Below, piece after piece: positions 1-45,725 of a stretch of DNA of 45,725 bases. Source of the stretch: Verrucomicrobiota bacterium. GTDB lineage: Bacteria; Verrucomicrobiota; Verrucomicrobiia; Chthoniobacterales; Terrimicrobiaceae. Each line of letters starts with the position of its first letter. The first letter of the stretch is position 1. A program made the translations under genes and the position numbers. The DNA is taken from positions 1-45,725 of the forward strand of contig JAGWWS010000023.1 in assembly GCA_018970255.1 (NCBI GenBank), in the 5' to 3' direction. The notes under the pieces are model-generated. The model saw only the letters and a list, made by a program, of their open reading frames with translations, had not been told where the DNA came from and made no database searches.

Positions 1-450
1 GAAATGGATGGAAGCCCCGCCCGTGTCGTCGATGGCTTCGAATTCCGGGTGTTCCATCACGACCTTGCCCGAGCGCTCGCGCGGCCGGCCGTAAACCACC
101 AGCAACTGCCCTCCCGAAACCGCATTTTGCACCCACGGCATGTTGAACCACCGGCAAGTGAGCGACGGCGTGAGCACATCGCCCGCCTCGTCCTCCAACC
201 GCACCTCGAAAATCCGGCGCGGTCCGAACCTCCGGTAAGTCGTCTTTTTCACGATTCCGAAAAGGCAAAGCGGCCGGTCGCATGCCTGGTCGGGAAACCT
301 GTCGAATTTCCTGCGGTCCTCGTGCCTCCTGGGAAAATGCCGCAACAAATCCGCGAGTGTATTCAGCCCGAGCCTCGCAAGGGGTGCCTGCCGGTTGCGG
401 GGCACCCAGTCGAGCGAGGCGAGGGGCGTATCGGGCGCAAGCCGGCTCAT
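1..450 (-). CDS. recG: ATP-dependent DNA helicase RecG, N-terminal part (cut by window edge)
   Basis: The first 150 codons are present and the reading frame runs off the window. The translation opens with a RecG-like start: a short helical segment with 'LGLNTLADLLRHFPRRHEDR' (RecG proteins carry LGI.T..DLL.hfPrrYeDR here), followed by the OB-fold wedge domain, in which 'LCLFGIVKKTTYRRFG' and 'LTCRWFNMPWV' fit the family pattern. RecG unwinds branched recombination and stalled-fork DNA. The helicase motifs lie outside the window. Its ATG overlaps the recJ stop in an ATGA junction, so the two are probably translationally coupled in one repair operon. Confidence 0.85.
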   Translation of the reverse strand, partial: MSRLAPDTPLASLDWVPRNRQAPLARLGLNTLADLLRHFPRRHEDRRKFDRFPDQACDRPLCLFGIVKKTTYRRFGPRRIFEVRLEDEAGDVLTPSLTCRWFNMPWVQNAVSGGQLLVVYGRPRERSGKVVMEHPEFEAIDDTGGASIHF

Positions 451-2135
451 GCCGCGGCCCGGATTTCCACGATTCGCATCTGCGCTTCCGCCCGCCCCTG
501 CCACACATTCCAATCCAGCGTGAACGCCACATCCCATGGCGGCCGCGGCAGCGAACCGACCGGCGCATTGAAATACACCGCCTTCACCCGCCGCCGCCCG
601 CATTGGAATTCGAGACCGAGGTGCTTGTCCTTCATCAACCGCGGCTCGCCGCATGGCGCCACCGCCCTTGAAAACAAGACCGGCTGCGGGTTCGAGGCGC
701 CGAACGGCTCCAACCTGTCCTGCGCGTCGAGCAAATCCCCGCCGACCTCCGCGAGACCGAGTTCGCCGTCGAGCGCGAGCCGAGGCGTCAGGATTTCCTC
801 CGTTGCCACGCCGCGCGCCGCCTCCTCGAACGCATCGCGGAACACGCCCAAATTTTCCTCCTTCAGCGAAATCCCCGCAGCCATGTCGTGGCCGCCGAAT
901 TTTTCCAAATGCCCGGCGCAATCCCTCAGCAACCCGACCAGCGAAATCCCCTCGATGCTCCGCCCGCTCCCCGTTCCGGCGCCATCGCCGTTGAAGCCGA
1001 TGACGAATGTCGGCCGGTTGAAGCGCCGCATGATCCTCGAAGCCACCACGCCGAGCACGCCGATGTGCCACTCGCGGCTGCCGGCGACGATGGTCGCATT
1101 GCTTGCGGGGTCGAAATTCTTCGCGGCCCAGTCCTCGGCTTCCTGCGCCACGCGCCGTTCCACGCCCTGCCTCTCGCGGTTGTGCTGGTCAAGCCCCGCC
1201 GCCAGTTTGGCAGCCTCCCGCCGGTCATCGGTGAGAAGCAGCGCGAGCGCCTCGCTCGCCGGCCCCAAGCGCCCGGCCGCATTGATGCGCGGACCCATTC
1301 GGAAACCGATGTCCGAAACGCGCACAGGCGTGGAAACCCCCGCCACATCCCGCAGCGCCGCAAGCCCGGCCCAGCGCGTGTGCTCCATCCGCTTCAACCC
1401 ATGCGAAACAAAAATCCGGTTCTCGCCCACCAGCGGCACGATGTCGGCCACCGTCGCCAGCGCGACCAAATCCAGGAAATCGCGCAAATCGAGCCCCTCC
1501 ACCGGCGATGCCTTCACCAACGCATGCGCGATTTTGAAAACCACACCCGCACTGCAGAGGTAATGGAAATCGGACCCCGCCTTGGGGTTCACCAGCGCCG
1601 TGCAATCCGGCCGCACCGGCCCGGGCTCATGGTGGTCGAGCACCACCACATCCACCCCCCGCGCACGCAGCAGCCCGATTTCGCGGACAGAATTCGTCCC
1701 GCAATCCACCGCCACCAGCAAACCCGGGCGGTGCGCCTCCACGCAACGCTCGACCCCGGCCGCACTGAGCCCGTAGCCCTCGCCCTCGCGCATGGGCAGG
1801 AAGCACTCCACATCCGCGCCGAACGCTTTCAAAACCCTCGCCAAAATCGCGAGCGAGGTGATGCCGTCCACATCGTAGTCGCCGTAGAGCACAATCCTCT
1901 CCCGCCCGCGGATTGCGGCCAGGAGCCGCTCCACAGCCTTCCCGGCATCGGGCAGCAACTCGGGCGCCGAGAGCGAGCGCAGCTTGGGGTTCAAATACGC
2001 TTCCGCCCCGGCCGGCTCCGCAAACCCCCTCCGCACCAGCAGCGATGCCAGGAACCCCGGCAGGCCGAGTTCACCGCGGACCCTCGCCACGGCGCCGTGG
2101 TCGGCATCGACCGGGAAAATCCAGCGGCGTTGCAT
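447..2135 (-). CDS. recJ: Single-stranded-DNA-specific 5'-3' exonuclease RecJ
   Basis: This 562-residue protein has the usual RecJ length and DHH-phosphoesterase architecture: DYDVDG at about residues 86-91, VDCGT at 143-147 and the signature DHH at 167-169 coordinate the catalytic metals. The DHHA1-like part holds 'GRSIEGISL' and 'GGHDMAAG', and an OB-like C-terminus follows. RecJ degrades 5' single strands in RecF-pathway recombination and mismatch repair. I chose the ATG at 2135 because the family homology begins there and a GAGG sits about 7 nt upstream; an upstream extension of the frame has no homology and would run into the preceding gene. The gene starts 10 nt after the preceding stop and overlaps recG by 4 nt, forming a three-gene minus-strand operon. 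Confidence 0.93.
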   Translation of the reverse strand: MQRRWIFPVDADHGAVARVRGELGLPGFLASLLVRRGFAEPAGAEAYLNPKLRSLSAPELLPDAGKAVERLLAAIRGRERIVLYGDYDVDGITSLAILARVLKAFGADVECFLPMREGEGYGLSAAGVERCVEAHRPGLLVAVDCGTNSVREIGLLRARGVDVVVLDHHEPGPVRPDCTALVNPKAGSDFHYLCSAGVVFKIAHALVKASPVEGLDLRDFLDLVALATVADIVPLVGENRIFVSHGLKRMEHTRWAGLAALRDVAGVSTPVRVSDIGFRMGPRINAAGRLGPASEALALLLTDDRREAAKLAAGLDQHNRERQGVERRVAQEAEDWAAKNFDPASNATIVAGSREWHIGVLGVVASRIMRRFNRPTFVIGFNGDGAGTGSGRSIEGISLVGLLRDCAGHLEKFGGHDMAAGISLKEENLGVFRDAFEEAARGVATEEILTPRLALDGELGLAEVGGDLLDAQDRLEPFGASNPQPVLFSRAVAPCGEPRLMKDKHLGLEFQCGRRRVKAVYFNAPVGSLPRPPWDVAFTLDWNVWQGRAEAQMRIVEIRAAA

Positions 2136-2145
2136 CGCCAAAACC

Positions 2146-3549
2146 TCAGGCGGCCTTGCGCCCGGCCTGCGAAACCAACCGACCGTAGAGCGAGTCCAGG
2201 CGCGCCACCGCAGCCTTCCACGAAAAATCCGATTCGCGCGACCTGCCCGAGAGCAGCTCCCTTTCCCCGCACCGCAGCGCCATCGCGCGGCAGAGCGTGT
2301 CGCAAAGCGCCGCAGCACCCTTGCGGTAAAAAACCAACCCGTTCCCCGTCCCGTGCACCTGGTCGTAATCCCGCACCATTTCGTGCAGCCCCGGGCACTG
2401 CGCCGCGATTGGCACCAATCCGTTCACCAGCGCCCGCATCATAAAAACCGACTGCGGCTCGAGCGGACCGGGCGCCAAAACAAAATCGCAAGCCGCGAGC
2501 ACGCTTTCCACACAGCCCGCGTTCGGCTCCGCAAAATGCACGAACCGCTTCGCATGGCGCCTCACCGCGATTTCGAATTCCATCGCCAACGCCGCAGGCA
2601 CTTCCCCGAGCAGCGCGATGTGCACCGGCGCCGCACCCAGCCGGTCCAGCGCCTCGAAAACCAAACCCAACCCCTCGCCCGCCGTGGACGCCGCATCCAG
2701 CGCCACGAACACCGCATTCCCGCCCGCGGCCGCCCCCGGAAAAACCTTCGCCCGCGCAGCCGCCTGGGCCTCCGGCGTCCGCGAAACCAGTCCCAATGCG
2801 GATTCCGGAACCCCCGGCGCGATGCCCTCGAGCTTGTCCGCATGCTGCCGCAGCACATTTTCCAAGCCGCACCCGTGCGCCGCCGTTTGCATCTCCGCCA
2901 CGGCCCGCGCGCCCGGCAGCACGACCGCATCGGAAAACACGATGCCCGCCTTCAGGAAATTCATGCTCCCGTAGAATTCGAGGCCCGCCGCCGAGAAATA
3001 CTGCCCCGGCAGGTTGGTCAGTGCGAAATCATGGCTCCAAAAGTTGCCTTGGAATTCGAGCGAGAACGGCGTCAGCACCGTCGGCACGCCGCCGCCCGCC
3101 TCGCGCAGGAAAACCGCTGCCAGCGCGGGTTGCCAGCCGAGCAGGTGCAGCACATCCGCGCGCCGCTGCCTCGCCGCCTCCGCCACCGCCTTCGCGAAAA
3201 AAATGAAACGCGCCGCGTTGTCGGAGTAGTCCTGGCCGTCCATCCCATACAGCCCCGTGCGGTCGAAATACTCGTCCCGCCCCATGAAAAGGAGCTTCAC
3301 GCCGCCCGCGCCCGCCGCCTCCCACACATCGCACGGCAGCCTCGAGGAGCCGACCTGCACCGGGAATTTCAGCTTCGTCCGCCGCGCGCCGAGCCCCGCA
3401 TTTTCCCTCACGCAGCGGTAAAACGGCAGCGCCACCGCGACCGAGTGCCCCGCCGCCGCGCTCCGTTCCGCCAATTCCCTCACCGAATCCGCAAAATCCC
3501 CCGTCCGCGCGAACGGCGCCATCTCGCTCGCTGCAATCAAAATTTCCAT
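2146..3549 (-). CDS. Glycogen/starch synthase (GT5)-fold protein with degenerate active site
   Basis: The 467-residue product has clear GlgA architecture: N-terminal 'MEILIAASEMAPFARTGDFA' matches the family start with its KTGGLAD motif, 'GLEFYGSMNFLKAGI' matches the GlgA segment around HGLEFNGQISFLKAG, and the end 'FSWKAAVARL' matches FSW..AA..Y. The catalytic positions have drifted: the ADP-glucose-binding Lys of KTGG is Arg and the second Gly is Asp, HAHDWH became HLLGWQ, the SRL.xQKG loop lacks its Arg and Lys, and EPCGL is EPQSV. It is therefore probably not an active ADP-glucose transferase and may be structural or regulatory, or bind another ligand. It heads the recJ-recG operon. An alternative start near 3669 adds residues without GlgA similarity; the ATG at 3549 is preferred. 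Confidence 0.8.
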   Translation of the reverse strand: MEILIAASEMAPFARTGDFADSVRELAERSAAAGHSVAVALPFYRCVRENAGLGARRTKLKFPVQVGSSRLPCDVWEAAGAGGVKLLFMGRDEYFDRTGLYGMDGQDYSDNAARFIFFAKAVAEAARQRRADVLHLLGWQPALAAVFLREAGGGVPTVLTPFSLEFQGNFWSHDFALTNLPGQYFSAAGLEFYGSMNFLKAGIVFSDAVVLPGARAVAEMQTAAHGCGLENVLRQHADKLEGIAPGVPESALGLVSRTPEAQAAARAKVFPGAAAGGNAVFVALDAASTAGEGLGLVFEALDRLGAAPVHIALLGEVPAALAMEFEIAVRRHAKRFVHFAEPNAGCVESVLAACDFVLAPGPLEPQSVFMMRALVNGLVPIAAQCPGLHEMVRDYDQVHGTGNGLVFYRKGAAALCDTLCRAMALRCGERELLSGRSRESDFSWKAAVARLDSLYGRLVSQAGRKAA

Positions 3550-3880
3550 CCCCGAATCATGCGGACCGCCCCGCCCCGAAGTCGAACCAAAACACGCCCG
3601 CCCGACCCGGTCCACCCCGCCCGCCCACCGCGAAAAATCCGCCCGTTTTTGCAACCGATTCATCTTCAAACAGCATACTTTTGGCGCGATTTATGCTTTG
3701 CCGAAAACCACAATATATGGTGGTCAAAAAAAATTTCACCACTACATGATGTTTTTATTTGACGATTCTTCGGGAAAAGCGATTCTCACGCCCACTTGCG
3801 CCGGGAGGGCGGCCTTGGCGGGAAGAAAACCGCGATCCGCCGTCCCCCCGACCCAGAAAAACACCAACACCCAACCCGCC
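3550..3880. promoter_or_regulatory. Divergent intergenic region between the GT5-like gene and nrdB
   Basis: These 331 bp hold no convincing gene. The segment 3660-3765 is markedly more A+T-rich than its surroundings and carries the two NrdR-box-like palindromes described separately; it should contain the promoters for nrdBA on the plus strand and for the GT5-like-recJ-recG operon on the minus strand. I could not assign -35 and -10 hexamers with confidence. Confidence 0.6.
3707..3755 (+). promoter_or_regulatory. Tandem NrdR-box-like operators upstream of nrdBA
   Basis: Box 1 at 3707-3724 reads ACCACAATATATGGTGGT, a near-perfect palindrome close to the known NrdR consensus ACACWATATATWGTGT. 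A weaker second copy, ACCACTACATGATGTTTT, begins at 3738, exactly 31 bp after the first, i.e. three helical turns, which is the spacing typical of NrdR box pairs. NrdR is an ATP-cone Zn-finger repressor of ribonucleotide reductase genes; its gene is not in this window. The boxes lie about 126 bp before the nrdB start. Confidence 0.8.
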
Positions 3881-4975
3881 ATGTCCAGCACCACCACCAT
3901 CACCCTCGGAGACCGCCAATTCGTCCTCGACCGCGACAAGGCAGAGGCCGCCTACTCCGCCAAGCGCGTCATCAACGGCCGCCAGACCATGTTCTTCAAC
4001 ATCCTCCCCCTGAAATACACCTGGGCCTACGACATCTACAAAAAGATGAAGGCGAACCACTGGGAGCCCGAGGACATCCAGATGCAGAAGGATTGCGAGC
4101 ACTGGCGCGACACCACCGGCTCCATTTCCGATGTGGACCGCTGGATCATCAAAATGGGCATCGGCTACTTCTCCGCGGCCGAAGGCATCGTCGGCGACAA
4201 CATTCTCCATGTCATCCGCGAGGCCGTCACCGCGCCGGAACTCAAGCTCGCCCTCGGCCGCCACGCCCAGGAGGAAAACATCCACGCCGATTCTCTCGTC
4301 TACATGATCAGCTCGCTCGGCATCAACCCGCACGAGTGCGAGGCCATGTTCGAGGACATCGCCACCATCAAGGACAAAACCGATTTCGTCGTCTCAAACA
4401 GCCGCGCCCTCCGCGGCGACACCGACTTCTCCGACCCCGCCAACAAGGCCGCGCTCGCGAAAAACATGTTCCTCTTCGGCCAATGCATGGAGGGCACCCA
4501 ATTCTACGGCCTCTTCGGCATGATCCTCGCCCTCTACCGCCAGAACAAATTCCCCGGCATCGGCCAGATGATCAGCTACACCCTCCGTGACGAGTCGAAC
4601 CACATCGAACTCCTCCGCCAGCTCTTCCAGGACCTCGTGGACGAGAACCCCGAGATCTGGACCGAGGAATTCCGCGAAGACCTCCGCTCCACGATGGCCG
4701 AGGCCATACGCCTCGAGAAACAATTCATCCGCGATTGCCTGCCCGTCGCCGCCGTCGGGCTCACCGTGGACGAGTTCTGCGGCTACATCGACTACATTGG
4801 CGACCGCCGCCTCGTCGGCGTGGGCCTCGAGCCGCTCCACAAAAACCTCGCGAACCCGCTCCCATGGCTCTCCGAAATGATGGAGATCAAAAAGGAAACG
4901 AATTTCTTCGAAGGCCGCGTCACCGAATACCGCCGCGGCGTCGACCTCGCCGGTGTCTCCGACGACGAATTGTAA
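3881..4975 (+). CDS. nrdB: Ribonucleoside-diphosphate reductase beta subunit, class Ic-like
   Basis: The 364-residue ferritin-like R2 subunit has all six metal ligands visible: E101 (SAAEGIVGDN), E132 and H135 (EENIHADSL), E204 (CMEGTQF), E238 and H241 (RDESNH). The residue that is the radical Tyr in E. coli NrdB (four after the first His) is Leu139, and the first ligand is Glu rather than Asp. Both features characterise the Chlamydia-type class Ic group, in which a Mn/Fe cofactor replaces the tyrosyl radical. Y141 corresponds to the Tyr that lies two residues after the Phe in the chlamydial protein. The subunit generates the radical used by NrdA for dNTP synthesis. The ATG at 3881 starts homology; gene order is nrdB before nrdA. 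Confidence 0.93.
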   Translation: MSSTTTITLGDRQFVLDRDKAEAAYSAKRVINGRQTMFFNILPLKYTWAYDIYKKMKANHWEPEDIQMQKDCEHWRDTTGSISDVDRWIIKMGIGYFSAAEGIVGDNILHVIREAVTAPELKLALGRHAQEENIHADSLVYMISSLGINPHECEAMFEDIATIKDKTDFVVSNSRALRGDTDFSDPANKAALAKNMFLFGQCMEGTQFYGLFGMILALYRQNKFPGIGQMISYTLRDESNHIELLRQLFQDLVDENPEIWTEEFREDLRSTMAEAIRLEKQFIRDCLPVAAVGLTVDEFCGYIDYIGDRRLVGVGLEPLHKNLANPLPWLSEMMEIKKETNFFEGRVTEYRRGVDLAGVSDDEL

Positions 4976-4989
4976 TTTCCGCCAAACCC

Positions 4990-5022
4990 CATTCCGCATT
5001 TCGCATTCCCCCATTTCGAATT
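4990..5022. repeat. Short tandem heptamer repeat in the nrdB-nrdA spacer
   Basis: The 59-bp spacer contains consecutive CATTCCG, CATTTCG and CATTCCC units followed by CATTTCG and AATTCC, i.e. about four imperfect copies of a 7-bp unit (CATTYCN). Such heptamer arrays are known from intergenic DNA of several phyla; here it separates two cotranscribed genes. No ribosome-binding role is evident. Confidence 0.55.
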
Positions 5023-5034
5023 CCATAAAAAACC

Positions 5035-8000
5035 ATGCCACGCCTACTCTCCCTTGACGAAGACCTCGCCCTGAAGCGCCTGGTCACCATGCCCCGCGAC
5101 CAGAAGCCCGACTTCTCCTGGCGCGAACACATCACCACCCCGCCCGCCCAGGCGCTCTCGGACATCATCGTCACCCGCCCGGACGGCCAGGAACAATCCT
5201 TCAGCCTCTCCGATGTCGCCGACGAAGTGGGCGAAGCCCTCACCGACCTCCTCCTCTCCCGCGAGGAAAAGGACATCTTCAACGAACAAAACCGCGGCTT
5301 CGTCGCGAATGTCGCCCACTCCGTCTCCCTAAGCCTCGCCGAGCAATCCGAAAAAACCGGCTCCCTCCGCCTCTCCGAGAACGACCTTTCGCTCCTCATC
5401 GAAAAGGCGCTCATCGAAAACGACGCCCACGATGTCGCGAAGAGCCTCGTCTTCAAACGCTCCGTCCGCACCGGCAAAGCCCCGGCGGACGACCACCTCG
5501 CCTCCGCCCCCATGGCCGTCCGCCTCATCCGGCGCAACGGCACCGTCGTCCCGTGGATGGAATCGAAAATCGAGCACGCCTGCCGCCGCGCGTTCCTCGA
5601 CATGAAGGAAAACGCCGAGGCCGCCGCCACCATCGCCCGCTCCGTCACCGAGCGCGTCCGCGCCCGCGAATCCGCCTTCGTCCACATCGAGGATGTCCAG
5701 GACCTCGTCCAGGAGGAACTCATGCGCCAGGGCTATTTCAAGGTCGCCGAGAGCTACATCCTCTACCGCGCCCACCGTGCCAGCCAGCGCGAGGAAAACT
5801 CCCGCGCCGAAGTCGAGGCCGCCTCGAACGACCTCCAGGAGTCGCTCATCATGGTCACCCAGCGGAACGGCCAGAACACCCTCTGGGACGGCTCCGAACT
5901 CAAAAAACGGATCCAGTTCGCCATGATCGGCCTCGACCTCAACCTCGACGCCGCCCAGATCGAGCGCGAACTCCGCCGCTCCCTCGCCAGCGAGGTGACC
6001 GAGGACATCCTGAAAAACACCGTCATCCTCAACGCCCGCACCCTCATCGAGCGCGACGCCGATTTTGCGAAGTTCGCAGCCCGCATCCTCCTTTCATATA
6101 TCTATGAGGAAGTCCTCGATTGGCGCATCGCCCGCGACGGCATCGAAGGCCTCCGCGAAGCCCACCGCAAAGCCTTCAAGGGCTACCTCCGCACCGGCGT
6201 CGCCATCGAACGCCTCTCGCCGAAACTCCTCGGCTACGACCTCGACGCCCTCGCCGACGCCATCGACCCCACTGCGGACATGGACTTCGACTACCTCGGC
6301 ATCCAGACCCTCTACGACCGCTACCTCATCGTCGACAAAACCAAGAAACCCGCCCGCCGCCTCGAGACGCCGCAGTTCTTCTGGATGCGCGTCGCCATGG
6401 GCCTCTTCATCGAGGAAGGCGCGAAAAAAGCCGACTGGGTCGTCCGCCTCTACAACCTCTACAAATCCCGCCGCTTCTGCTCCAGCACGCCGACCCTCTT
6501 CAATTCCGGCACCCTCCACAGCCAGCTCTCCAGCTGCTACCTCTACAAGGTCGACGACTCCATCGAGTCGATCATGCAGCGCGGCATCGCCGAAAACGCC
6601 TACCTCTCGAAATGGGCCGGCGGGCTCGGCGGCTCATGGACAGCCGTGCGCGGCACCGGCAGCTACATCAAGGGCACCAACGGCGAATCCCAGGGCGTCA
6701 TCCCGTTCCTGAAGCTCCACAACGACCAGCTCGTCGCCGTCAACCAGGGCGGCAAGCGCCGCGGCTCCGGCTGCGCCTACCTCGAGACCTGGCACAACGA
6801 CATCGAGGACTTCCTCCAGCTCCGCCGCAACACCGGCGACGACCGCCGCCGCACCCACGACCTCAACACCGCGAACTGGGTCCCCGACCTCTTCATGAAG
6901 CGCATGGAGGCCCGCGAAAACTGGACCCTCTTCCGCACGAACGAAGTCCCCGACCTCCACGACGCCTACGGCCGCAAGTTCGAGGAACGCTACAGCCACT
7001 ACGAGGAACTCGCCCGCCAGGGGAAAATCACCGGCAAGGAAGTCCCCGCCATCGAGGTCTGGAAGCAGATGCTCAAAATGCTCCTCGAGACCGGCCACCC
7101 CTGGATCACATTCAAGGACCCCTGCAACCTCCGCAGCCCGCAGGACCACGCCGGCGTCATCCACTCCTCGAACCTCTGCACCGAGATCACGCTGAACACC
7201 AGCGAGGACGAAACCGCCGTCTGCAACCTCGGCTCCATCATCCTCGACACCCACATCAAGGCCGACGGCTCCCTCGACCACGAGATGCTCAAGGAGACCA
7301 TCCATGTCGCCATCCGCGCCCTCGACAATGTCATCGACATCAATTTCTACCCCACCGAGGCCGCCAAGCGCTCGAACCTTCGCCACCGCCCGGTTGGCCT
7401 CGGCGTCATGGGCCTCCAAAACGCCCTCTTCAAGCGCGGCATCGGCTTCGCCACGCCGGAAGCCGTCGAATTCAACGACGAATTCATGGAAGCCATCGCC
7501 TTCCACGCCTACTCCGCCTCCAGCGACCTCGCCGCCGAGCGCGGCCCCTACTCCAGCTACCGCGGCTCGAAATGGGACCGCGGCCTCCTCCCGCAGGACA
7601 CCATCGACCTCCTCGAGCGCGAGCGCGGAGTGAAGATCGACGTCCCCCGCGGCGGCCGGCTCGACTGGACCCCCGTGCGCGAAAAAATCAAGCGCCAGGG
7701 CATGCGGAACTCGAATGTCCTCGCCATCGCCCCCACCGCCACCATCTCGAACATCACCGGCACCACGCCCTGCATCGAGCCGAACTACAAAAACCTCTAC
7801 GCCAAGGAAAACCTCGGCGGCAAATTCACCATCCTCAGCACCGAGCTCGTCCGCGACCTGAAGAAAATCGGCAAGTGGGACAACCGAATGCTCGAACAGC
7901 TCAAATACTTCGAGGGCGAACTCGCGAACATCGAGGAAATCCCCGAAGCCATCCGCGAAAAGCACCGCACCGTCTTCACCATCGGCCACGAGTTCGTCAT

Positions 8001-34261: not shown

Positions 34262-34971
34262 CCGGAAAAAAACCAGCCCTCCCGCGCATCGCGGCCCACA
34301 TGGCCGCCACGGCCGACGGCAAAATCAGCACCCGCCGTTTCACCCCGTCCCAATTCACTTCCCCCGCCGACAAAGCGCGCCTGCATGAAATCCGCGCCGC
34401 ACACGATGCCATCCTCGCCGGCCGTGGAACGGTGGCCGCCGACACCATGTCCATGCGGCTCTCGAATGAAAAACTCCGTGCCGCCCGCATCCGCCGCGGG
34501 CTTCCCGCCGAGCCATTGAGGGTGGTGGTGTCGAATGCCGGCCGCCTCGACCCCGCCTGGAAAATCTTCCAACACCGCGGCTCGCCCCTCGTGGTTTTTT
34601 CCACCACGCGCATGCCCGCCCAAACCCGTTCCGCCATCGCCCCGCTCTGCGACCTGTATTTGTTCGAAGCCCCCGCGGTGCCCCTCCGTGCCGCAATGGC
34701 ATTGCTGCGCCCAGCCTACGGGGTGCGCTCGCTCGTTTGCGAAGGCGGCGGGGAACTCCTCCGCTCGCTGGCGGAAGGCGGCATGCTCGACGAAATCCAC
34801 CTCACGGTGGCGCCCGTGGTCTTCGGCGGCTCCGGCGCACCCACGCTCACGGGATTGCCCGGCGGGTTCCTGCCGAACCCCATGGAATTCCAAATCGCCC
34901 GCCTGCGCACCATCGGGGACGAATGCGTGCTGCACCTGGTCCGCGGAAAAAAGAAGCGGACCCGCGTGTGA
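34258..34971 (+). CDS. RibD C-terminal (DHFR-like) reductase
   Basis: The 237-residue product has the RibD_C fold: 'IAAHMAATADGKISTRRF' at the start, 'AHDAILAGRGTVAADTMSMR', 'LVCEGGGELLRSLAEGGMLD' and 'TVAPVVFGGSGAPTLTG'. The stand-alone reductase domain reduces 5-amino-6-ribosylaminopyrimidinone phosphates in riboflavin or deazaflavin synthesis, or unrelated substrates with NADPH. No rib genes are near; here it more likely serves the cluster or was recruited. It is convergent with the response-regulator gene and its 3' end contains the terminator for that operon. Confidence 0.85.
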   Translation: MTGKKPALPRIAAHMAATADGKISTRRFTPSQFTSPADKARLHEIRAAHDAILAGRGTVAADTMSMRLSNEKLRAARIRRGLPAEPLRVVVSNAGRLDPAWKIFQHRGSPLVVFSTTRMPAQTRSAIAPLCDLYLFEAPAVPLRAAMALLRPAYGVRSLVCEGGGELLRSLAEGGMLDEIHLTVAPVVFGGSGAPTLTGLPGGFLPNPMEFQIARLRTIGDECVLHLVRGKKKRTRV

Positions 34972-37493: not shown

Positions 37494-37513
37494 CAAAAAT
37501 CCGTATATTTTTG
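37494..37513. promoter_or_regulatory. A+T-rich inverted repeat in the kinase/FecR-protein divergent region
   Basis: CAAAAAT-CCGTAT-ATTTTTG has perfect 7-bp arms and lies 41 bp upstream of the kinase start and 64 bp before the FecR-domain gene, in the only strongly A+T-rich stretch nearby. It could be an operator for either gene; no regulator is identified. Confidence 0.35.
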
Positions 37514-37576
37514 ATTGCGCCGGCGCGCTCAGGCGCTGATATTATTACGTTTCCTTGCGGTGAAACCATTCTCTCC

Positions 37577-38620: not shown

Positions 38621-38709
38621 AAGACCTCTCGGAATCCCGCCGAAAAATTCACACAAAAAGGTTCGCCCTTCCGTCGTCCCCCCGATAGGCACCTCGGGCT
38701 CAGCGCCCG

Positions 38710-39780
38710 ATGATACCCATCACCATCGAGAACCTCGTCAAGAAATTCGGTGATGTCGCCGCATTGCGCGGCGTTTCGCTCCGCATCGAAAAAGGCGAAC
38801 TCTTCTTCCTCCTCGGCCCGAGCGGTTGCGGGAAAACCACGCTCCTCCGCAACATCGCCGGGTTCTACATCCCCGATTCCGGCCGCATCCTGTTCGGCGA
38901 CGACGATGTCACGCGCGTGCCGCCCCACCGCCGCAACACCGGCATGATGTTCCAGAGCTACGCGCTTTGGCCCCACATGACCGTCGCCAAGAATGTCGCC
39001 TTCGGCCTCGAGGAGCGCCGCGTCCCCTCCGCCGAAATCAAATCCCGCGTCCACGAGGCACTCGCCTCGGTCCAGATGGAATCCTACGCGGACCGCAAGA
39101 TCGCCCAACTCTCCGGCGGCCAGCAGCAGCGCGTCGCCCTCGCCCGCGCCCTTGTCATCCGCCCACGCTGCCTGCTCCTCGACGAACCCCTCTCGAACCT
39201 CGACGCGAAACTCCGCCTCGAGATGCGCACCGAAATCCGCCGCGTTTGCAAGGAGTCCGGCCTCACCGCCATCTATGTCACGCACGACCAGAAGGAGGCG
39301 CTCTCCATCTCCGACCGCATGGCGATCCTCGAATCCGGCACCATCGCGCAGGTCGGCACGCCCGAGCAGGTCTACCGGCGCCCGCGCACCAGGGTCGTGG
39401 CCGACTTCATCGGCGAAACCAATTTCCTTGAAGGAAAAATCCTCTCCTCCGACGGGGCCACGGGTGCCGTCGAGACCCCCTTCGGCCGCTTTGAAGGGCA
39501 TTTCGGCGACCCGGATTGGAAGCCCGCCGCGGGCTCCCCGGCCGTCCTCTCCATCCGCCCCGAGAGTTGGGCGCTCCGCGAAGAACCCGCAGCCCGCAAC
39601 TCCATCCCGGGCGAAATCCGCGATTCCATCTACCTCGGCGAAGTCGCCCAATACCAGTTCGCCGCAGCCTCCACCCCGCTGAAAATTTTCGAACTCAACC
39701 CCCACCTCGCCGGCCGCGAAAACGGCCACAAATGCCACGCCGTTGCGGACCCCGGGGATGTCGTCATCCTCCAGCCCTGA
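38710..39780 (+). CDS. ABC transporter ATP-binding protein, Fe3+/spermidine (FbpC/PotA) family
   Basis: The 356-residue ATPase has Walker A GPSGCGKTTL near 37-46, Q-loop MFQSYALWPHMTV, signature LSGGQQQRVALARAL, Walker B CLLLDEPLSNLD, switch His in YVTHDQKEAL, and a C-terminal TOBE-like regulatory domain (about 240-356) as in FbpC/PotA. It powers import by the permease and binding protein encoded next. The substrate (iron, polyamine or other) is not determined by the sequence. Confidence 0.92.
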   Translation: MIPITIENLVKKFGDVAALRGVSLRIEKGELFFLLGPSGCGKTTLLRNIAGFYIPDSGRILFGDDDVTRVPPHRRNTGMMFQSYALWPHMTVAKNVAFGLEERRVPSAEIKSRVHEALASVQMESYADRKIAQLSGGQQQRVALARALVIRPRCLLLDEPLSNLDAKLRLEMRTEIRRVCKESGLTAIYVTHDQKEALSISDRMAILESGTIAQVGTPEQVYRRPRTRVVADFIGETNFLEGKILSSDGATGAVETPFGRFEGHFGDPDWKPAAGSPAVLSIRPESWALREEPAARNSIPGEIRDSIYLGEVAQYQFAAASTPLKIFELNPHLAGRENGHKCHAVADPGDVVILQP

Positions 39781-39796
39781 CGCCGCCGCGCCTCCC

Positions 39797-41416
39797 ATGA
39801 AGACGCAAGACCGCCCGGTGAGCCTGCGCGTCCTGGCCGTCGGCATCGCGCTCGCCATCGTCATCGGCCTGCCCTTCGCGCTGAAGCCGCGCAACGACCT
39901 CCTCGCCTCCGCCGACGAAACGCTCACCATCATCACCCCGCACAACGAAGCCGTCCGCCACGAGTTCGCCACCGCCTTCGCCCGCCACTACCGGGAAAAA
40001 ACCGGCCGCACCATCCGCATCGATTGGCGCATGCCCGGCGGCACCAGCGAAATCTCGCGCTACCTTGCCGGCGAATACCTCGCCGCCTTCGAGGCAGAAT
40101 GGAAAAAATCCGGCCGCGATCCCTCGCCCGAAGCCTCTTCGTCGTTCGACAGCCCCTCGGTAAAACTCCCACCCGACCCCGCCTCCGACACCACCGCGCA
40201 AGCCGCCCGCCGTTTTTTCCTCTCGTCGAACACCGGCATCGGCATCGACCTCTTCTTCGGCGGTGGCGCCTACGATTTCGACCAACAAGCCGCCGCCGGC
40301 CGCCTTGTCCCCTCCGATGCCATCCGCAACCACCCTGCGTGGTTCACGGAAAACTCCATCCCCCAATCCGTCTCGGGCGAAATCTTCTACCAGCCCGACG
40401 GCACCTGGATCGGCGCCTGTCTCTCCTCGTTCGGCATCTGCTACAATACCGACTCGCTCCGCCGCCTCGGCATCGAAACCCTCCCCGCCTCCTGGCAGGA
40501 CCTCACGAACCCAGCCTTCCAGCGCCAAGTCGCCCTCGCCGACCCCACCAAGAGCGGCTCCGCGGCGAAAGCCTTCGAAATGGTCATCCAGCAGCAAATG
40601 CAACAACTCACCGCCGCCGGCGGGGGCGAACACGAGGCCCTCGTCGCCTCCGGCTGGATCCGCGGCCTGCAAATCATCCAGGCCGCCTCCGCAAACGCCC
40701 GCTACTTCACCGACTCCGCCGCGAAAATCCCCATCGATGTCTCGCTTGGCGACGCCGCCATCGGAATGTGCATCGACTTCTACGGCCGCTTCCAGAGCGA
40801 AGCCGTGAAGGTCGGCAGCGGCGAATCCCGCTTGCAATACTTCACCCCCGCCGGCGGCAGCTCGGTCGGCGTGGACCCCATCGGCCTCCTGCGCGGCGCG
40901 CCGAACCGCCCCGCCGCCGAGGAGTTCATCGCCTTCACCCTCTCGCTCGAAGGGCAAAAACTGTGGAACTTCAAGCCCGGCACACCCGGCGGACCAGAAA
41001 AATACGCCCTCCGCCGCCTCCCCATCCGCAAAGAACTCTACGCCCCCGAATACGCGCAATACCGGTCCGACCCCGAAGTCCAACCCTACGAGGAGGCGAA
41101 GCTCTTCACCTACCACCCCGCCTGGACCGCCCCGCTCTTCCGCGTGATCGCCTTCATCGTCCGCGTCATGTGCCTCGACCTCCACCACGAGCAGGCCGCC
41201 GCCTGGCAGGCGCTCGCCGCCGCCGGCTTTCCCCGAGAGGCCTACAAAAAATTCACCGACCTCTCCGCCGTGGACTACGAAACCTCCCGCAACACCCTCA
41301 AGCCCGCGCTCGCCTCGAGGAACCGCATCGACGAAGTCCGCCTCGCCAAGGAACTCTCCGACAAATTCCGGGCCCAATACCGCGAAGCCACCCGCCTCGC
41401 CAAGGAGGGCAAATGA
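39797..41416 (+). CDS. Extracellular solute-binding protein of an Fe3+-type ABC importer
   Basis: At 539 residues it is longer than usual for family-1 binding proteins (about 340). An uncleaved or weakly cleaved N-terminal helix (about 10-28, VLAVGIALAIVIGLPFA) may anchor it. 'LTIITPHNEAVRHEFATAF' begins the periplasmic fold; 'IGACLSSFGICYNTDSL', 'VALADPTKSGSAAKAFEMVI' and 'AAIGMCIDFYGRF' are family blocks. An extra C-terminal helical region (about 410-539) has no clear counterpart. It lies between the ATPase and the permease genes. Confidence 0.86.
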   Translation: MKTQDRPVSLRVLAVGIALAIVIGLPFALKPRNDLLASADETLTIITPHNEAVRHEFATAFARHYREKTGRTIRIDWRMPGGTSEISRYLAGEYLAAFEAEWKKSGRDPSPEASSSFDSPSVKLPPDPASDTTAQAARRFFLSSNTGIGIDLFFGGGAYDFDQQAAAGRLVPSDAIRNHPAWFTENSIPQSVSGEIFYQPDGTWIGACLSSFGICYNTDSLRRLGIETLPASWQDLTNPAFQRQVALADPTKSGSAAKAFEMVIQQQMQQLTAAGGGEHEALVASGWIRGLQIIQAASANARYFTDSAAKIPIDVSLGDAAIGMCIDFYGRFQSEAVKVGSGESRLQYFTPAGGSSVGVDPIGLLRGAPNRPAAEEFIAFTLSLEGQKLWNFKPGTPGGPEKYALRRLPIRKELYAPEYAQYRSDPEVQPYEEAKLFTYHPAWTAPLFRVIAFIVRVMCLDLHHEQAAAWQALAAAGFPREAYKKFTDLSAVDYETSRNTLKPALASRNRIDEVRLAKELSDKFRAQYREATRLAKEGK

Positions 41417-41478
41417 AAACTCCCGCACTGGAACCTGTGTCCCTCGGCAACTTGGACCTAACACTACAAAACAAGGGG

Positions 41479-41499
41479 GCATGGCCGTCCCGGCCGTGC
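41479..41499. repeat. Hairpin in the spacer between binding-protein and permease genes
   Basis: GCATGGCCG-TCC-CGGCCGTGC pairs at eight of nine positions. It is followed 55 bp later by a copy of the dispersed palindromic repeat. No U-tract follows, so it is unlikely to be an intrinsic terminator; it may moderate expression of the downstream permease. Confidence 0.5.
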
Positions 41500-41554
41500 G
41501 GAGACTGTTCCACCTCCACACTCCCCGCCCCCAACCCCACAACACCGCTCCAAC

Positions 41555-41580
41555 AGGAGGGCGCTGCTCGTCAGCGCCGC
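41555..41580 (+). repeat. Dispersed palindromic repeat, copy C
   Basis: AGGAGGGCGCTGCTCGTCAG followed by CGCCGC differs from copy A by one base in the loop. The stem GGCGCTG/CAGCGCC is kept. It occupies the 292-bp spacer between the solute-binding-protein and permease genes, which otherwise holds no convincing gene. Confidence 0.8.
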
Positions 41581-41708
41581 CGCGGCTCCCAAAAACACAC
41601 AGGCCCTGCCCTTAGAAACCCCGTGCGCCAGCGGATCCACTCAATCAAAATCTGGAAGGTCCATCCCGCATGGGCAACCACAACGCTCCGCGCGGGCAAC
41701 ACACCTGA

Positions 41709-43403
41709 ATGAGCCGCCCCTTCGCCAAACTCGTCTTCCTCCTCACCGCCGCGTTCTTCGCGCTCTTCTTCCTCTGGCCCATCGCCGAAACCATCCGCGG
41801 CGCGTTCATCGGGTCGGACGGCCGGTTCACCCTCGACTACATCGGCGAGGTTTTCCGGAACCCCATCTACCTCGAGGGACTCTGGAATTCGCTCCAAATG
41901 GGCGTCTGGAGCACCCTCCTCACCGCGCTCATCGCCATCCCGCTCGCGTGGATTTCGGACCGCTTCCTCTTCCCGGGGAAAACCCTCCTCGGCGCACTCG
42001 TCCTTGTCCCCATGATCCTCCCGCCGTTTGTCGGTGCGATCGGCATCAAGCAAATCCTCGGTCAGGAAGGCGCGCTCAACGCCCTGCTCGCCTCCATCGG
42101 CCTCCTCGACCCGTCCGCGCCCATCGATTGGCTCGGCGAAGGCCGCCTGTGGGGCGTCATCGCCCTCAACGCCCTCCACCTCTACCCCATCCTCTACCTC
42201 AATGTCCTCGCCGCGCTCGCGAATGTGGACCCCGCGATGGAGGAGGCCGCCGAGAACCTCGGCTGCACCGGCCTCCGCAAATTCCGCCGCGTGACCTTTC
42301 CCCTCATCATGCCGGGTGTCTTCGCGGGCGGCACCATCGTCTTCATCTGGTCGTTCACCGAACTCGGCGTGCCGCTCATGTTCGACTTCACCCGCGTCAC
42401 CTCGGTCCAAATTTTTTACGGCATCAAGGACATCGGCGGAAACCCCTTCCCCTTCGCGCTCGTCGTCGTCCTTCTCGCCTCCACGGTCCTCATGTATGCC
42501 GCCGGGAAATTTTTCTTCGGCCGCGACTCCCACGCCATGATGGCGAAAGCCACGAGCCAAGGCGGTCCGCGCCCGACCAGCCCCGCCACCGGCTTGCTTT
42601 GCACCGCGCTCTTCAGCCTGGTGACCTTCCTCGCGGTGCTCCCCCACATCGGCGTCGTCCTCGTCGCATTCTCCACCGATTGGTATCAATCCATCCTCCC
42701 CAGCGGCTGGACGCTCTCGCACTTCGAAGCCGCGCTCGGCCACAACCTCACGCTCCCCTCGATCCAAAACAGCCTCAAATACGCGGCCCTCGCCACGCTC
42801 GTGGACCTCGTCCTCGGCATCGCCATCGCCTATGTCGTCGTCCGCAGCAACCTCCCCGGCCGCCAGGTCCTCGACGCCATGTCGATGATGCCCCTTGCGG
42901 TCCCCGGCCTCGTCCTCGCCTTCGGCTACCTCGCGATGACGCAGGAAGGGAAGTTCTTCCATTTCCTCAACCCCACCACCGACCCGCTCGCGATCCTCGT
43001 CATCGCCTACTCCGTGCGCCGCCTGCCCTATGTGGTCCGCTCCGCCGCGGCGGGCTTCCAACAAACCAGCGTCGCACTCGAGGAAGCCGCGCAGAACCTC
43101 GGCTGCCCGCCGCTCAAGGCGCTCCGCAAAATCACCATCCCCCTCATCGCAGCCAACCTCCTCGCCGGCGGGTTGCTCGCATTTTCATTCGCGATGCTCG
43201 AGGTCAGCGACTCCCTGATCCTTGCGCAAAAGCAGCAGGATTTCCCGATCACGAAAGCCATCTACGAACTCTACCAACTCCTCGGCGAAGGCCGCTTCGT
43301 CGCCAGCGCCCTCGGCGTCTGGGCGATGGCATTCCTTGGGGTCACGATCATCGGCGCCAGCATCATCCTCGGCAAAAAACTCGGCGCCATCTTCCGGGTC
43401 TGA
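41709..43403 (+). CDS. ABC transporter permease, fused two-domain Fe3+ type (FbpB-like)
   Basis: The 564-residue membrane protein has about twelve transmembrane segments in two homologous halves, each with the ABC permease EAA loop: 'EEAAENLGCTGLRKFRRVTF' near 178 and 'EEAAQNLGCPPLKALRKITI' near 458. Both halves contact the ATPase. The fused arrangement is usual for Fe3+-type importers. It follows the ATPase and binding-protein genes but is separated from them by a repeat-filled spacer, which may uncouple its expression. Confidence 0.92.
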   Translation: MSRPFAKLVFLLTAAFFALFFLWPIAETIRGAFIGSDGRFTLDYIGEVFRNPIYLEGLWNSLQMGVWSTLLTALIAIPLAWISDRFLFPGKTLLGALVLVPMILPPFVGAIGIKQILGQEGALNALLASIGLLDPSAPIDWLGEGRLWGVIALNALHLYPILYLNVLAALANVDPAMEEAAENLGCTGLRKFRRVTFPLIMPGVFAGGTIVFIWSFTELGVPLMFDFTRVTSVQIFYGIKDIGGNPFPFALVVVLLASTVLMYAAGKFFFGRDSHAMMAKATSQGGPRPTSPATGLLCTALFSLVTFLAVLPHIGVVLVAFSTDWYQSILPSGWTLSHFEAALGHNLTLPSIQNSLKYAALATLVDLVLGIAIAYVVVRSNLPGRQVLDAMSMMPLAVPGLVLAFGYLAMTQEGKFFHFLNPTTDPLAILVIAYSVRRLPYVVRSAAAGFQQTSVALEEAAQNLGCPPLKALRKITIPLIAANLLAGGLLAFSFAMLEVSDSLILAQKQQDFPITKAIYELYQLLGEGRFVASALGVWAMAFLGVTIIGASIILGKKLGAIFRV

Positions 43404-43409
43404 CCCAAA

Positions 43410-43503
43410 GGTAGGGTCGGCCCTCCGGGCGGACCCAAGCTTCAGGCGCTGCAAGCGCCGTCTGCGTAAAAAAATCACGCGGCTCGGAGATCCGCGCCTA
43501 CCC
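43410..43503 (+). repeat. REP-like element, left copy flanking the RAYT gene
   Basis: The 94-bp element starts GGTAGGG and ends CCTACCC, and contains three hairpins: GGGTCgGCCC-TCC-GGGCgGACCC, GGCGCT-GCA-AGCGCC and CGCGG-loop-CCGCG, the last preceded by seven A on this strand. Read on the minus strand that last hairpin plus T-run has the form of an intrinsic terminator. It begins 7 bp after the permease stop and is about 88% identical to the right copy. Confidence 0.88.
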
Positions 43504-43579
43504 TGGGTTTTCGGTGGCGCTGCCGCACCATTCATTTTTGTGGTTCTTTTCGAAATCCCGTTTACCGGAAAATCCATCC

Positions 43580-44026
43580 ATGGACGCTGGCCGAAAGTCC
43601 CTCCCTCACGATCCCCCGCTTTGGCTCGACCTCCGCGGCGCCATCTTCTTCATCACGTGTTGCGCCAGGGACCGTGACATCAAACCTTTCGCCAAGCCGG
43701 AAACGGCAGCCGCCCTTTTGGAATCGATCCGCCACCAAATGCTATCGCGAATCTGGCGCGTCCACACCGCCACCATCATGCCCGACCATGTCCACCTGGT
43801 TTTGGAATTCCCGCGGGAAGCCGATGTGGCAAAAAGTGTGCGCGATTGGAAACGCTGGACGGCGCGGAACCTGGGATTCCGATGGCAGCGCGACTTTTTC
43901 GAGCACCGTTTGAGAAAAGAAGAAAGCTTCGATGAGAAAACCCGGTATGTCCTCGAGAACCCCGTCCGCGCCGGATTGGTCCAGGATTGGCGCGAGTGGC
44001 CCTACACGATTTCCTCCAAAAGGTAG
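43580..44026 (+). CDS. REP-associated tyrosine transposase (RAYT, Y1/HUH family)
   Basis: The 148-residue protein shows the RAYT pattern: 'FFITCCARDRDIKPF' at the start, the HUH-like MPDHVHLVLEF (H70, H72), DWKRWTARNLGFRWQRDFFE, HRLRKEES and the catalytic Tyr123 in YVLENPVRAGLV, ending WPYTISSKR. RAYTs cut and join single-stranded REP DNA and are thought to spread REP elements while being immobile themselves. It is flanked on both sides by REP-like repeats, and its TAG stop is the TAG in the GGTAGGG start of the right repeat. Its start ATG is 43580. The gene looks intact. Confidence 0.92.
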   Translation: MDAGRKSLPHDPPLWLDLRGAIFFITCCARDRDIKPFAKPETAAALLESIRHQMLSRIWRVHTATIMPDHVHLVLEFPREADVAKSVRDWKRWTARNLGFRWQRDFFEHRLRKEESFDEKTRYVLENPVRAGLVQDWREWPYTISSKR

Positions 44027-44112
44027 GGACGGCCCTCCGGGCTGACCCAAGCTTCAGGCGCTGCAAGCGCCGTCTGCGCGAAAAAATAGGGCGTCTCGGA
44101 GATCCGCCCCTA
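44022..44112 (+). repeat. REP-like element, right copy flanking the RAYT gene
   Basis: This 91-bp copy has the same orientation as the left one. Its first bases give the RAYT stop (TAG at 44024-44026) and its last bases, read on the other strand, give the TAG stop of the MscS gene (44112-44110). On the minus strand, GGGCG-loop-CGCCC followed by TATTTTTT is a good terminator just after mscS. The outer stem pair changed from CGCGG/CCGCG to GGGCG/CGCCC compared with the left copy, a compensated change. Confidence 0.88.
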
Positions 44113-45546
44113 ACCCAAAGGGCGCGTGAGCTTGCGGCGGTCGTCGATGAATTGGCTGATCTCGAGTGCGAAGCGGGGGAGGCGCTGGACGAGTTGGTTG
44201 ATGGCGGTGGGCTCGATGCGCAGCACCGTGGCGGTTTCCACCACCCTGGCCGTGAACGGGCTGGCCTCTCCCGAGAGGAGGACCATTTCGCCAAGGAAGT
44301 CGCCTTCGGTGAGTTGTGCGATGGGCTGATCGGCGGAGGGGGGCAGGAGGGCGACGCGGCCGGAGAGGACGACGAAAAAGGCTTCGTCGGGTTCGCCGGC
44401 GCGGACGATGTTTTCCCCGGAGCCGAACATCTCGAAGGAAGCCGAGGCGGCGAGTTGGTGGATGGCGGGCTCGTCGAGGTGGGAGAAGAGGGGCTGTTTT
44501 TTCAGCGAGGCGGCGAGGCGGGCTTCGCGGGCGGGGGCTTCCTGCGGGGCGGGGGCGGTGCGTTGTTCGATGCGTTCGGGGTAGGCGAGCGACATGCCGG
44601 CGCGGCGCATGGCGTAGTAGGCGCGGCGGAGGAATTCGTCGCTGATCGGTTCGGACTTCGAATACTCGGTGACGAAAAACCGGATTTCGTAACGGATGGT
44701 GGCGTTCCTGTATTCCATCGGGTCCACCTCGGGTTCGGGCTTGGCGAGGACGCCTTCGATGCCGAGGAGGACCTTGAGCAGGGTGTCGCGGACGAGGTCG
44801 GGGTGGTCGGCGCTGGAGAGGTCTATTTTGAGCCGGATGGCGTGGAGGGGATCGTCGAGGACGAAGTTGACGATCTTTTCCTTCCCGAGGTTGCCGTTCG
44901 GGATGACGACGACATCGCGGTCGATGGTGCGGATGCGGACGGCGCGCCAATTGATTTCGATGACTTCGCCTTCCACATCGCCGACGCGGATCCAATCGCC
45001 GACCTTGAATGGGCTTTCGATGATGAGGAGGAAGCCTGAGACGAGGTTGCTGAGGGTGTCCTGCAGGGCGAGGGCGATGACGAGCGAGCCGATGCCAAGG
45101 GTGCCCATGATTTTCGAGACATCGATTTTCCAGACCGAGGCGAGCAGGTAGGTGAGGGCGCCGAAGACCAGCAGTGCGCGGACGAGCTGGAACAGGAGGT
45201 TCGGCATGATGATTTGCCAGCTCGTTTTGCGGTCCGTGCCCGAGGAGACGATGTTCCGGAAGACAAGTAGCGCGGTGTAGGTGAGGGAAATCCAGAAAAG
45301 TGTGCGGACGATTTGCAGGGCGGTGCCATCGTTCGGGGCGGAAAAAAACCTGGTGGCGATGAACCATGCGGCGAGCAGGGGGACGAGCAGTGTGCGCGTG
45401 GCGGAGACGGCGCCTGCGAACGGGCTTCCCGAGCGGCGGAGGCGGTGGACGAGTTCGCCCAGGGCGATCACCAGCAGCGGCAGGCCGATGATGAGGGCGA
45501 GGCCTTCGAAGATCAGGGCGTTGGCTGGGCCGGGTTCGGCGGGCAT
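44110..45546 (-). CDS. MscS-family mechanosensitive channel with C-terminal cyclic-nucleotide-binding domain
   Basis: The 478-residue protein has about four to five N-terminal hydrophobic helices, the pore-lining and MscS beta domain ('GTLGIGSLVIALALQDTLSN', 'SGFLLIIESPFKVGDWIRVG', VIPNG), the MscS C-terminal alpha/beta part, and from about 345 a cNMP-binding domain ('LFSHLDEPAIHQLAASASFE', 'GEPDEAFFVVLSGRVAL', EGDFLGEMVLLSGEASPFTARV). The canonical phosphate-binding FGE(x)ALL..RxA is here LGEMVLLSGEASPFTARV; the Glu and Arg are present. This architecture is known as a cyclic-nucleotide-gated MscS-like channel. It starts 2 bp after the cyclase stop. Confidence 0.9.
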   Translation of the reverse strand: MPAEPGPANALIFEGLALIIGLPLLVIALGELVHRLRRSGSPFAGAVSATRTLLVPLLAAWFIATRFFSAPNDGTALQIVRTLFWISLTYTALLVFRNIVSSGTDRKTSWQIIMPNLLFQLVRALLVFGALTYLLASVWKIDVSKIMGTLGIGSLVIALALQDTLSNLVSGFLLIIESPFKVGDWIRVGDVEGEVIEINWRAVRIRTIDRDVVVIPNGNLGKEKIVNFVLDDPLHAIRLKIDLSSADHPDLVRDTLLKVLLGIEGVLAKPEPEVDPMEYRNATIRYEIRFFVTEYSKSEPISDEFLRRAYYAMRRAGMSLAYPERIEQRTAPAPQEAPAREARLAASLKKQPLFSHLDEPAIHQLAASASFEMFGSGENIVRAGEPDEAFFVVLSGRVALLPPSADQPIAQLTEGDFLGEMVLLSGEASPFTARVVETATVLRIEPTAINQLVQRLPRFALEISQFIDDRRKLTRPLG

Positions 45547-45548
45547 GG

Positions 45549-45725
45549 TCAATCGTTGCGGGAATCCGAGAGGATCCAGGCGGCGGGGCTGCCGCCGATG
45601 GCCGGTGCGGGCTCGAACCGGAAGACATCCTTCACCCGCTCGCAAACGGCATCGCCTGCGAGGATGGAACCGGCCGGGGCTGCGGCGGCAAGGGCGCGGG
45701 CGCCGTCGATGGCGGGTCCCCAGAC
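45549..45725 (-). CDS. Probable class III adenylate/guanylate cyclase, C-terminal end (cut by window edge)
   Basis: Only the last 58 codons are present. The translation 'VWGPAIDGARALAAAAPAGS' followed by ILAGDAVCERVKD-FRFEP resembles the class III cyclase segment (VWGdaVN.AaRl...a..G.IlvS...). The Asn that usually follows V (in VN..AR) is Asp, and only the Arg of AR is retained among catalytic-loop residues that are visible. The gene ends 2 bp before the cyclic-nucleotide-binding MscS gene, supporting a cNMP-related role. Identification is tentative because the core motifs lie outside. Confidence 0.55.
   Translation of the reverse strand, partial: VWGPAIDGARALAAAAPAGSILAGDAVCERVKDVFRFEPAPAIGGSPAAWILSDSRND

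What the first reader, a model, noticed from the sequence alone, without database searches (positions are those of the whole stretch)
1..45725. GTAC is absent from the whole window
A hand search of both GTA and TAC contexts found no GTAC in 45.7 kb, while composition at about 64% G+C predicts roughly 150. Neighbouring words are common (CTAC, ATAC, GTAG, GTAT, GTAA). Synonymous choice appears to avoid it: Tyr TAC follows GAA, AAA or CAA (GAATAC, AAATAC, CAATAC) rather than the G-ending codon, and after G-ending codons Tyr becomes TAT (CTGTAT at 34655, CGGTAT at 43946). GTAC is the RsaI-type site. Avoidance could reflect long exposure to a restriction system or a host mark.
Basis: partly seen in the sequence, partly recalled or inferred. 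Interest (0 to 1): 0.82.

Follow-up and report, generated by a model that had tools for sequence, protein, structure and literature searches.

The report
Bacteria and phages purged of GTAC
A group of lake bacteria, and phages that probably infect them, have lost almost every copy of the four-letter DNA word GTAC outside their ribosomal RNA genes, most likely because a DNA-cutting activity not yet identified attacks that word.

Summary
The window has 0 GTAC, 55.6 expected. In 1.74 Mb of the same genome (about 68%) there are 10, 2,026 expected. Predicted genes hold 5, against 1,992 by synonymous shuffling, and all three codon phases are depleted. The organism is a Spartobacteria-type verrucomicrobial bin. 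In its genus 7 of 16 genomes are near zero and 8 clearly are not; the same contrast recurs in other genera of the class. Ribosomal RNA keeps the word: 14 of 15 GTAC in one congener stretch lie in 16S/23S genes. Two unrelated phage families, found through a phage contig in this bin, are purged too: 139 of 160 loci have none, 1,273 expected; five outside phages are not depleted. Best reading: selection against the word by DNA restriction, active or ended very recently, since about 67 sites should return per 1% synonymous change. The enzyme was not found. No PabI relative was found in this genome, and no methylase family tested (D12, C5; PF01555 in fewer genomes) runs through the near-zero genomes. 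One near-zero genome of the order, G029, carries a PabI gene with no methylase motif on its 20 kb.

The parts
1..45725 (.). Whole window: contig C11 of the assembly, without a single GTAC on either strand (the word is its own reverse complement)
   Evidence: count 0, expected 55.6 by maximal-order Markov; contig identity
5035..8301 (+). Ribonucleotide reductase gene, used only to place the organism and to rank its congeners; an ordinary housekeeping gene
   Evidence: PF02867 E 1.3e-184; relatives

Best explanation
The lineage, and phages that probably infect it, live under a DNA-level restriction activity aimed at GTAC, and in part of the lineage also at ACGT. Each GTAC carries a small cost in the host, presumably occasional cleavage of an unprotected site. 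In a very large population even a small cost removes nearly every site that can be lost without harm and blocks new ones, so sites survive mainly where RNA function forbids change. Incoming phages are attacked at the same word and have purged it too. Shown here: the purge, its presence in all codon phases, the rRNA refuge, the purge in related phages, the contrast among congeners. Inferred: that the agent is a Type II-like restriction activity, that it is still in the population, and that the phages infect this lineage. Not shown: which gene it is, and whether a methylase protects the sites that remain.
For: Genome: 10 against 2,026; genes 3, 0, 2 by codon phase against 91, 314, 1,587. Deamination cannot empty phases where C-to-T or G-to-A changes the protein, and changes at the central T or A cannot empty the Tyr phase, so no single kind of mutation explains it (inference). 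Refuge: 14 of 15 GTAC of a 20 kb G010 stretch in rRNA genes; 7 in 2.5 kb of 23S in G029 against 0 of 34 expected in 23.6 kb elsewhere. Phages: 28 against 782 and 51 against 810 in two unrelated families, 139 of 160 loci with none; five outside phages 0.80-1.06 of expectation. The two most avoided words in the phages, GTAC and ACGT, are palindromes, as are 13 of the 14 most avoided hexamers listed. Internal example: AGATCT is the most avoided hexamer listed in host and phages, and congener G015 has a BglII-family pair (that BglII cuts AGATCT is recalled). Contrast among congeners. Ongoing: about 67 sites per 1% synonymous change would return, 5 are present in the genes.
Against: No GTAC-specific enzyme was found. 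Of 23 near-zero genomes tested with a PabI profile only G029 matched clearly; D12 methylases matched 9 of 23 and C5 methylases 12 of 23; G015 (99% complete) has only a BglII-type pair among the families tried. Gamma-type methylases were not searched for. About a third of this genome was not read. Counts among relatives are graded as well as near zero (for instance 25, 28, 40), so the switch is not strictly on/off. The phage-host link is weak: binning uses tetranucleotides, and the second terminase's top cultured relatives infect Microcystis, Rhodoferax and Pelagibacter.
Confidence: 0.78

Rival explanations
1. Footprint of a restriction system that an ancestor had and that is now lost.
For: Traces of lost systems are documented (PMC4687349, abstract and passages); no cognate gene was found here; half-depleted congeners look like decay of an old purge.
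Against: About 67 sites would return per 1% synonymous change in the genes in hand, 5 are present (rough rate model). Related phages are purged at present.
Confidence: 0.09
2. Mutational decay of methylated sites (deamination of a methylated C, or error-prone repair of an excised A), without selection against the word.
For: TAT replaces TAC after G, which deamination would also give.
Against: All three codon phases are emptied, including those where each such change alters the protein; phages are purged too; the rRNA copies persist.
Confidence: 0.04
3. An RNA-cutting toxin that cleaves GUAC in messages, sparing folded rRNA.
For: rRNA keeps the word; phage and host genes lose it.
Against: GTAC and ACGT are palindromes, and palindromes dominate the other avoided words, which points to enzymes that bind DNA symmetrically; GTAC is also scarce outside predicted genes (3 against 109.3 in 96.5 kb, two of the 3 in rRNA).
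Confidence: 0.04
4. The phages encode a GTAC-specific nuclease that destroys host DNA, and both sides have purged the word.
For: Phages are as fully purged as the host for GTAC, and many loci more so for ACGT.
Against: Losing a few of 2,000 sites would hardly protect a host, so stepwise selection is weak; two unrelated phage families would both need the enzyme. I did not search the phages for one.
Confidence: 0.03

Closest known systems
GTAC rarity with PabI-family restriction glycosylases in Helicobacter and Campylobacter (PMC10273834; passages and section 4.2 seen)
   Same: Same word, rare in the host genome, ascribed there to long-term inheritance of a toxic GTAC-specific restriction enzyme.
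   Different: No PabI relative found in this genome or in 22 of 23 near-zero genomes tested. I did not measure Helicobacter here, so I cannot compare the degree.
Restriction-site avoidance in prokaryotic genomes (PMC4687349; abstract and passages seen) and in their viruses (PMC6286503; listing and start of abstract only)
   Same: Loss of a palindromic Type II word from host and phage DNA.
   Different: Here the loss is near complete over a genome (0.5% of expectation), with rRNA genes as the main place where the word stays; no cognate system is identified.
RsaI system of Rhodobacter blasticus, m4C methylation of GTAC (PMC6256690, whole text read)
   Same: Shows that phosphodiester-type GTAC systems with an m4C methylase exist.
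   Different: No RsaI sequence was at hand; whether the unknown enzyme is related was not tested.

Membership tests
Restriction-site avoidance (Type II) | The word is far below expectation and palindromic | tested here: met
   10 against 2,025.9 in 1.74 Mb
Restriction-site avoidance (Type II) | Depletion is word-level, in all codon phases | tested here: met
   3, 0, 2 against 91, 314, 1,587
Restriction-site avoidance (Type II) | Phages of the host avoid the word as well | tested here: inconclusive
   139 of 160 related phage loci have none, but their host is inferred, not shown
Restriction-site avoidance (Type II) | A cognate endonuclease (with methylase) in the genome or a close relative | tested here: inconclusive
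   None found in 68% of this genome with PADLOC scans and motif scans; gamma-type methylases in relatives not searched
PabI-family restriction system | R.PabI homologue in the genome | tested here: not met
   No match in G000 by PF09522, by protein and by a four-row profile; the search covers the whole assembly, which is 93.4% complete
PabI-family restriction system (G029, a relative, not this genome) | Methylase gene beside the R gene | tested here: not met
   No [DNS]PP[YFW] motif in any open frame of 100 aa or more on the 20 kb held; G029 has three PF01555 methylases elsewhere, targets unknown
Any GTAC modification system | Methylated GTAC in the genome | not testable with these tools
   No long-read modification data

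The most novel reading that the evidence does not exclude
Self and non-self are told apart by absence of the word instead of by methylation: a GTAC-specific restriction agent without a cognate methylase is tolerated because the chromosome has almost no sites outside rRNA genes, which are somehow spared. G029, with a PabI gene among housekeeping genes, no methylase motif within the 20 kb held and GTAC confined to rRNA in the stretches seen, would be one concrete instance; the window's lineage would use a different, unknown enzyme. Against it: G029 has three unlinked PF01555 methylases, and the rRNA copies would need protection or repair.
Probability: 0.18. Interest if true: 0.88.

Novelty: new variant of a known kind. 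Interest (0 to 1): 0.64.

Why it matters
Here a tetramer is almost extinct in whole genomes and in phages that probably infect them, with the rRNA operon as its main refuge. That is a clean natural measurement of how strongly restriction can shape genomes; the word count becomes a quick marker for an undiscovered GTAC-specific enzyme in a group of lake bacteria, and a clue for matching phages to these uncultured hosts. If the agent has no methylase, the genome itself would be the antidote. Six searches of the held paper library (listings only, apart from the papers named in this report) showed no report of this in Verrucomicrobiota; subscription papers are mostly not held.

Tried and rejected
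PabI as the agent in this genome: no match in three searches; weak matches in G002 (E 0.008, 34 residues, a stop inside) and G102 (E 0.8) were taken as chance. Against a simple PabI story: G338, a congener of the PabI carriers G184 and G210, has no match at E 0.01 yet is equally depleted (23 against 316). The orphan PF01555 methylase on contig C26 (L171 7296-8423): full-length relatives in G005, G010, G024 and G026, none in the near-complete near-zero genomes G003 and G015, so not the common cause. The ParB-methylase and both C5 hits of this genome lie on phage contig C79. D12 methylases match 9 of 23 and C5 methylases 12 of 23 near-zero genomes; PF01555 was run on 9 near-zero genomes and matched 7, with no methylase common to G003, G010 and G015. 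A PADLOC 'Type II nicking endonuclease' hit was traced by eye to a MutY-like protein (L256:3721-4665), not confirmed by a scan of its own. Motif scans for GIY-YIG, HNH and PD-(D/E)XK enzymes gave one UvrC-like protein (by eye), no HNH and many unspecific PD-(D/E)XK strings. Paper searches without useful new result.

Limits. Maximal-order Markov expectations use trimers that are themselves depleted. The within-gene shuffle keeps protein and codon use but not dinucleotides across codon junctions, so the middle phase (314) is overestimated: other words with T|A at that junction run about 0.3-0.5 of their shuffle value. GATC, taken along as a word, is 0.67 of its shuffle value. My gene finder is home-made; 'outside genes' includes missed genes (residual GTAC L100:19678 looks coding by eye). 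PADLOC scans covered 974 of 1,327 predicted proteins (those of 110-900 aa with fewer than two membrane-like segments, outside C79) plus 16 phage proteins; the cut-off was 1e-4 and 1e-12 in the others, and two of seven lists were truncated (25 of 63 families, 25 of 28). Some of the 160 phage loci are near-duplicates. The near-zero tally was read from the table by eye. Several short contigs of the assembly read as N.

Full report
What was checked. The window holds no GTAC; 55.6 are expected from its own trimers, and it is the most depleted of 256 tetramers. The window is contig C11 of a 2.56 Mb, 88-contig assembly, 93.4% complete. The ten genes scanned are ordinary or unassigned: ribonucleotide reductase, cation ATPase, histidine kinase, transporter, epimerase, FMN dehydrogenase, TIM-barrel protein, peptidase, two without a family. 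The closest named relatives of its ribonucleotide reductase are Spartobacteria, Chthoniobacter and Terrimicrobiaceae metagenome bins, so the organism is an uncultured verrucomicrobial bacterium; that these are largely lake plankton is my inference from the isolate names.

Genome scale. I obtained 1,737,546 unmasked bases in 132 stretches, about 68% of the assembly. They hold 10 GTAC against 2,025.9 expected, 0.5%; next come CTAG (0.19) and ACGT (0.19). Two of the ten lie in 23S rRNA, one of them in what I recall as the sarcin-ricin loop; five lie in predicted genes and five outside, the two rRNA copies included.

Selection against the word, not one kind of mutation. In 1,327 predicted genes GTAC is seen 3, 0 and 2 times in the three codon phases, against 91, 314 and 1,587 when synonymous codons are shuffled within genes. 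The control words CATG, TGCA and TCGA come to 1.08-1.09 of their shuffle totals; GATC is 0.67, CTAG 0.38 and ACGT 0.12. Loss by deamination cannot empty phases where C-to-T and G-to-A alter the protein, and loss at the central T or A cannot empty the tyrosine phase, yet all are nearly empty. Codon choice shows it: after a G-ending codon tyrosine is TAT 622 times and TAC twice, after a C-ending codon TAT 922 and TAC 5,123 times.

The refuge. In a 20 kb stretch of the near-zero congener G010 14 of 15 GTAC lie in the 23S (9) and 16S (5) genes. In G029, another near-zero genome of the order, 2.5 kb of 23S holds 7, while 23.6 kb of other sequence holds none with 34 expected. So single sites are survivable, and the word persists where RNA function demands it.

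Contrast among relatives. I counted SSGTACSS against the reversed control SSCATGSS in 39 genomes. In the genus 7 of 16 genomes have at most 10 (controls 1,005-2,286), one has 25, and eight have 94-246. In 387 genomes of the phylum 16 have at most 10 with a control of at least 250, all in the window's class; some genera contain both states, for instance 0, 0, 1 and 289 in genus g35 (read by eye). Intermediate counts are common as well (for instance 28 of 2,462 and 40 of 1,752), so the picture is a wide range with a cluster at zero. Among 80 named loci around the reductase gene, 9 of the 78 with at least 7 expected have none.

Phages. Contig C79 of the bin carries two large terminases, two major head proteins, portal and tape measure genes and has 0 GTAC against 43.9 and 4 ACGT against 81.1. 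I took the best 80 IMG/VR relatives of its portal gene (85 found) and of its second terminase (167 found). GTAC is 28 against 782 and 51 against 810; 71 of 80 and 68 of 80 loci have none; ACGT is 0.13 and 0.24 of expectation, CTAG 0.60 and 0.56. Some loci keep ACGT and part of their GTAC (for instance L379, L396, L401, L413, L428-L431, L456), which suggests other hosts. Stretches of five outside phages have 0.80-1.06 of expected GTAC. The portal's first-listed cultured relative infects Akkermansia, also a verrucomicrobial host (24% identity), but that phage is not depleted and the second terminase's nearest cultured relatives infect Microcystis, Rhodoferax and Pelagibacter. So the host link rests on binning and shared word loss, and binning itself uses tetranucleotides. 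ACGT is a separate case: congener G005's locus L009 has 0 GTAC but 41 ACGT against 34.8, while L006 (G015) has 0 against 22.8.

Who does it. PabI-family enzymes attack GTAC and go with its rarity in Helicobacter and Campylobacter (PMC10273834, passages and section 4.2). Of 387 genomes 4 carry one over the cut-off, and their SSGTACSS counts are 0.056-0.086 of control; each has a gene with an NPPY or NPPW motif beside it, and the R gene is broken by a frame change in G156 and G230. G338, a congener of two of them without a match, is equally depleted (0.073), so the link is not exclusive. G029 carries a PabI gene (E 4e-19 to a solved R.Pab1-family chain) among housekeeping genes, with no methylase motif on 20 kb, though three PF01555 methylases lie elsewhere in that genome. 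This genome has no PabI relative, and of 23 near-zero genomes only G029 matched clearly. D12 methylases match 9 of those 23 and C5 methylases 12; G015, 99% complete, has only a BglII-type pair among the families tried. A PADLOC scan of 974 of 1,327 predicted proteins of this genome, plus 16 phage proteins, showed no Type II endonuclease apart from one hit that I assign to MutY; two of seven lists were truncated.

Still acting, or very recently. With 17,450 one-step synonymous routes into GTAC in the genes in hand, about 67 sites would return per 1% synonymous change if selection stopped (rough rate model); 5 are present. Traces of lost systems are documented (PMC4687349, abstract and passages) and may explain the half-depleted congeners, but fit the near-zero genomes poorly.

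Verdict. The finding is real and stronger than stated. It works like restriction avoidance carried almost to extinction of the word, in host and likely phages alike. The agent is unknown; naming it is the open question.

Noticed in passing
L136 940-1761 and L180 9940-10788 (genome G029, contig C49): PabI-family gene between a gene read by eye as polX-like and one like arfB, no methylase motif on the 20 kb; possible N-terminal hydrophobic extension ahead of the conserved start.
   Followed up: partly
L177, L302, L303 (own contig C79, 56.8 kb): Phage contig with two terminases and two major head proteins, that is two phages in one contig (tandem prophages or an assembly or binning joint), with a ParB-fused methylase and two C5 methylase matches.
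   Followed up: partly
L322-L481 (IMG/VR loci): Besides GTAC, many loci lack ACGT almost wholly and as a set avoid many six-base palindromes (AGATCT 33 against 325, GTCGAC 78 against 707, CTGCAG 49 against 350): several restriction pressures at once.
   Followed up: partly
L171 7296-8423, minus strand (own contig C26): Orphan DNA methylase with a TSPPF motif (m4C-like by recall) with relatives in G005, G010, G024, G026; target unknown.
   Followed up: partly
L147 78-1507 (genome G015, contig C58): Methylase plus BglII-family endonuclease pair (PF09195); AGATCT is the most avoided hexamer listed in the window's own genome and in the phages.
   Followed up: partly
own genome and L006, L019 against L009: ACGT is depleted in this genome (0.19) and near zero in G015 and G002 loci, but normal in the G005 locus although GTAC is zero there: a second, separately varying target.
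   Followed up: no
L268, L269 (own contigs C78, C80): Several genes look phage-like by eye (ligase-like, Cas4-like, helicase-like proteins); not scanned against PHROGs.
   Followed up: no
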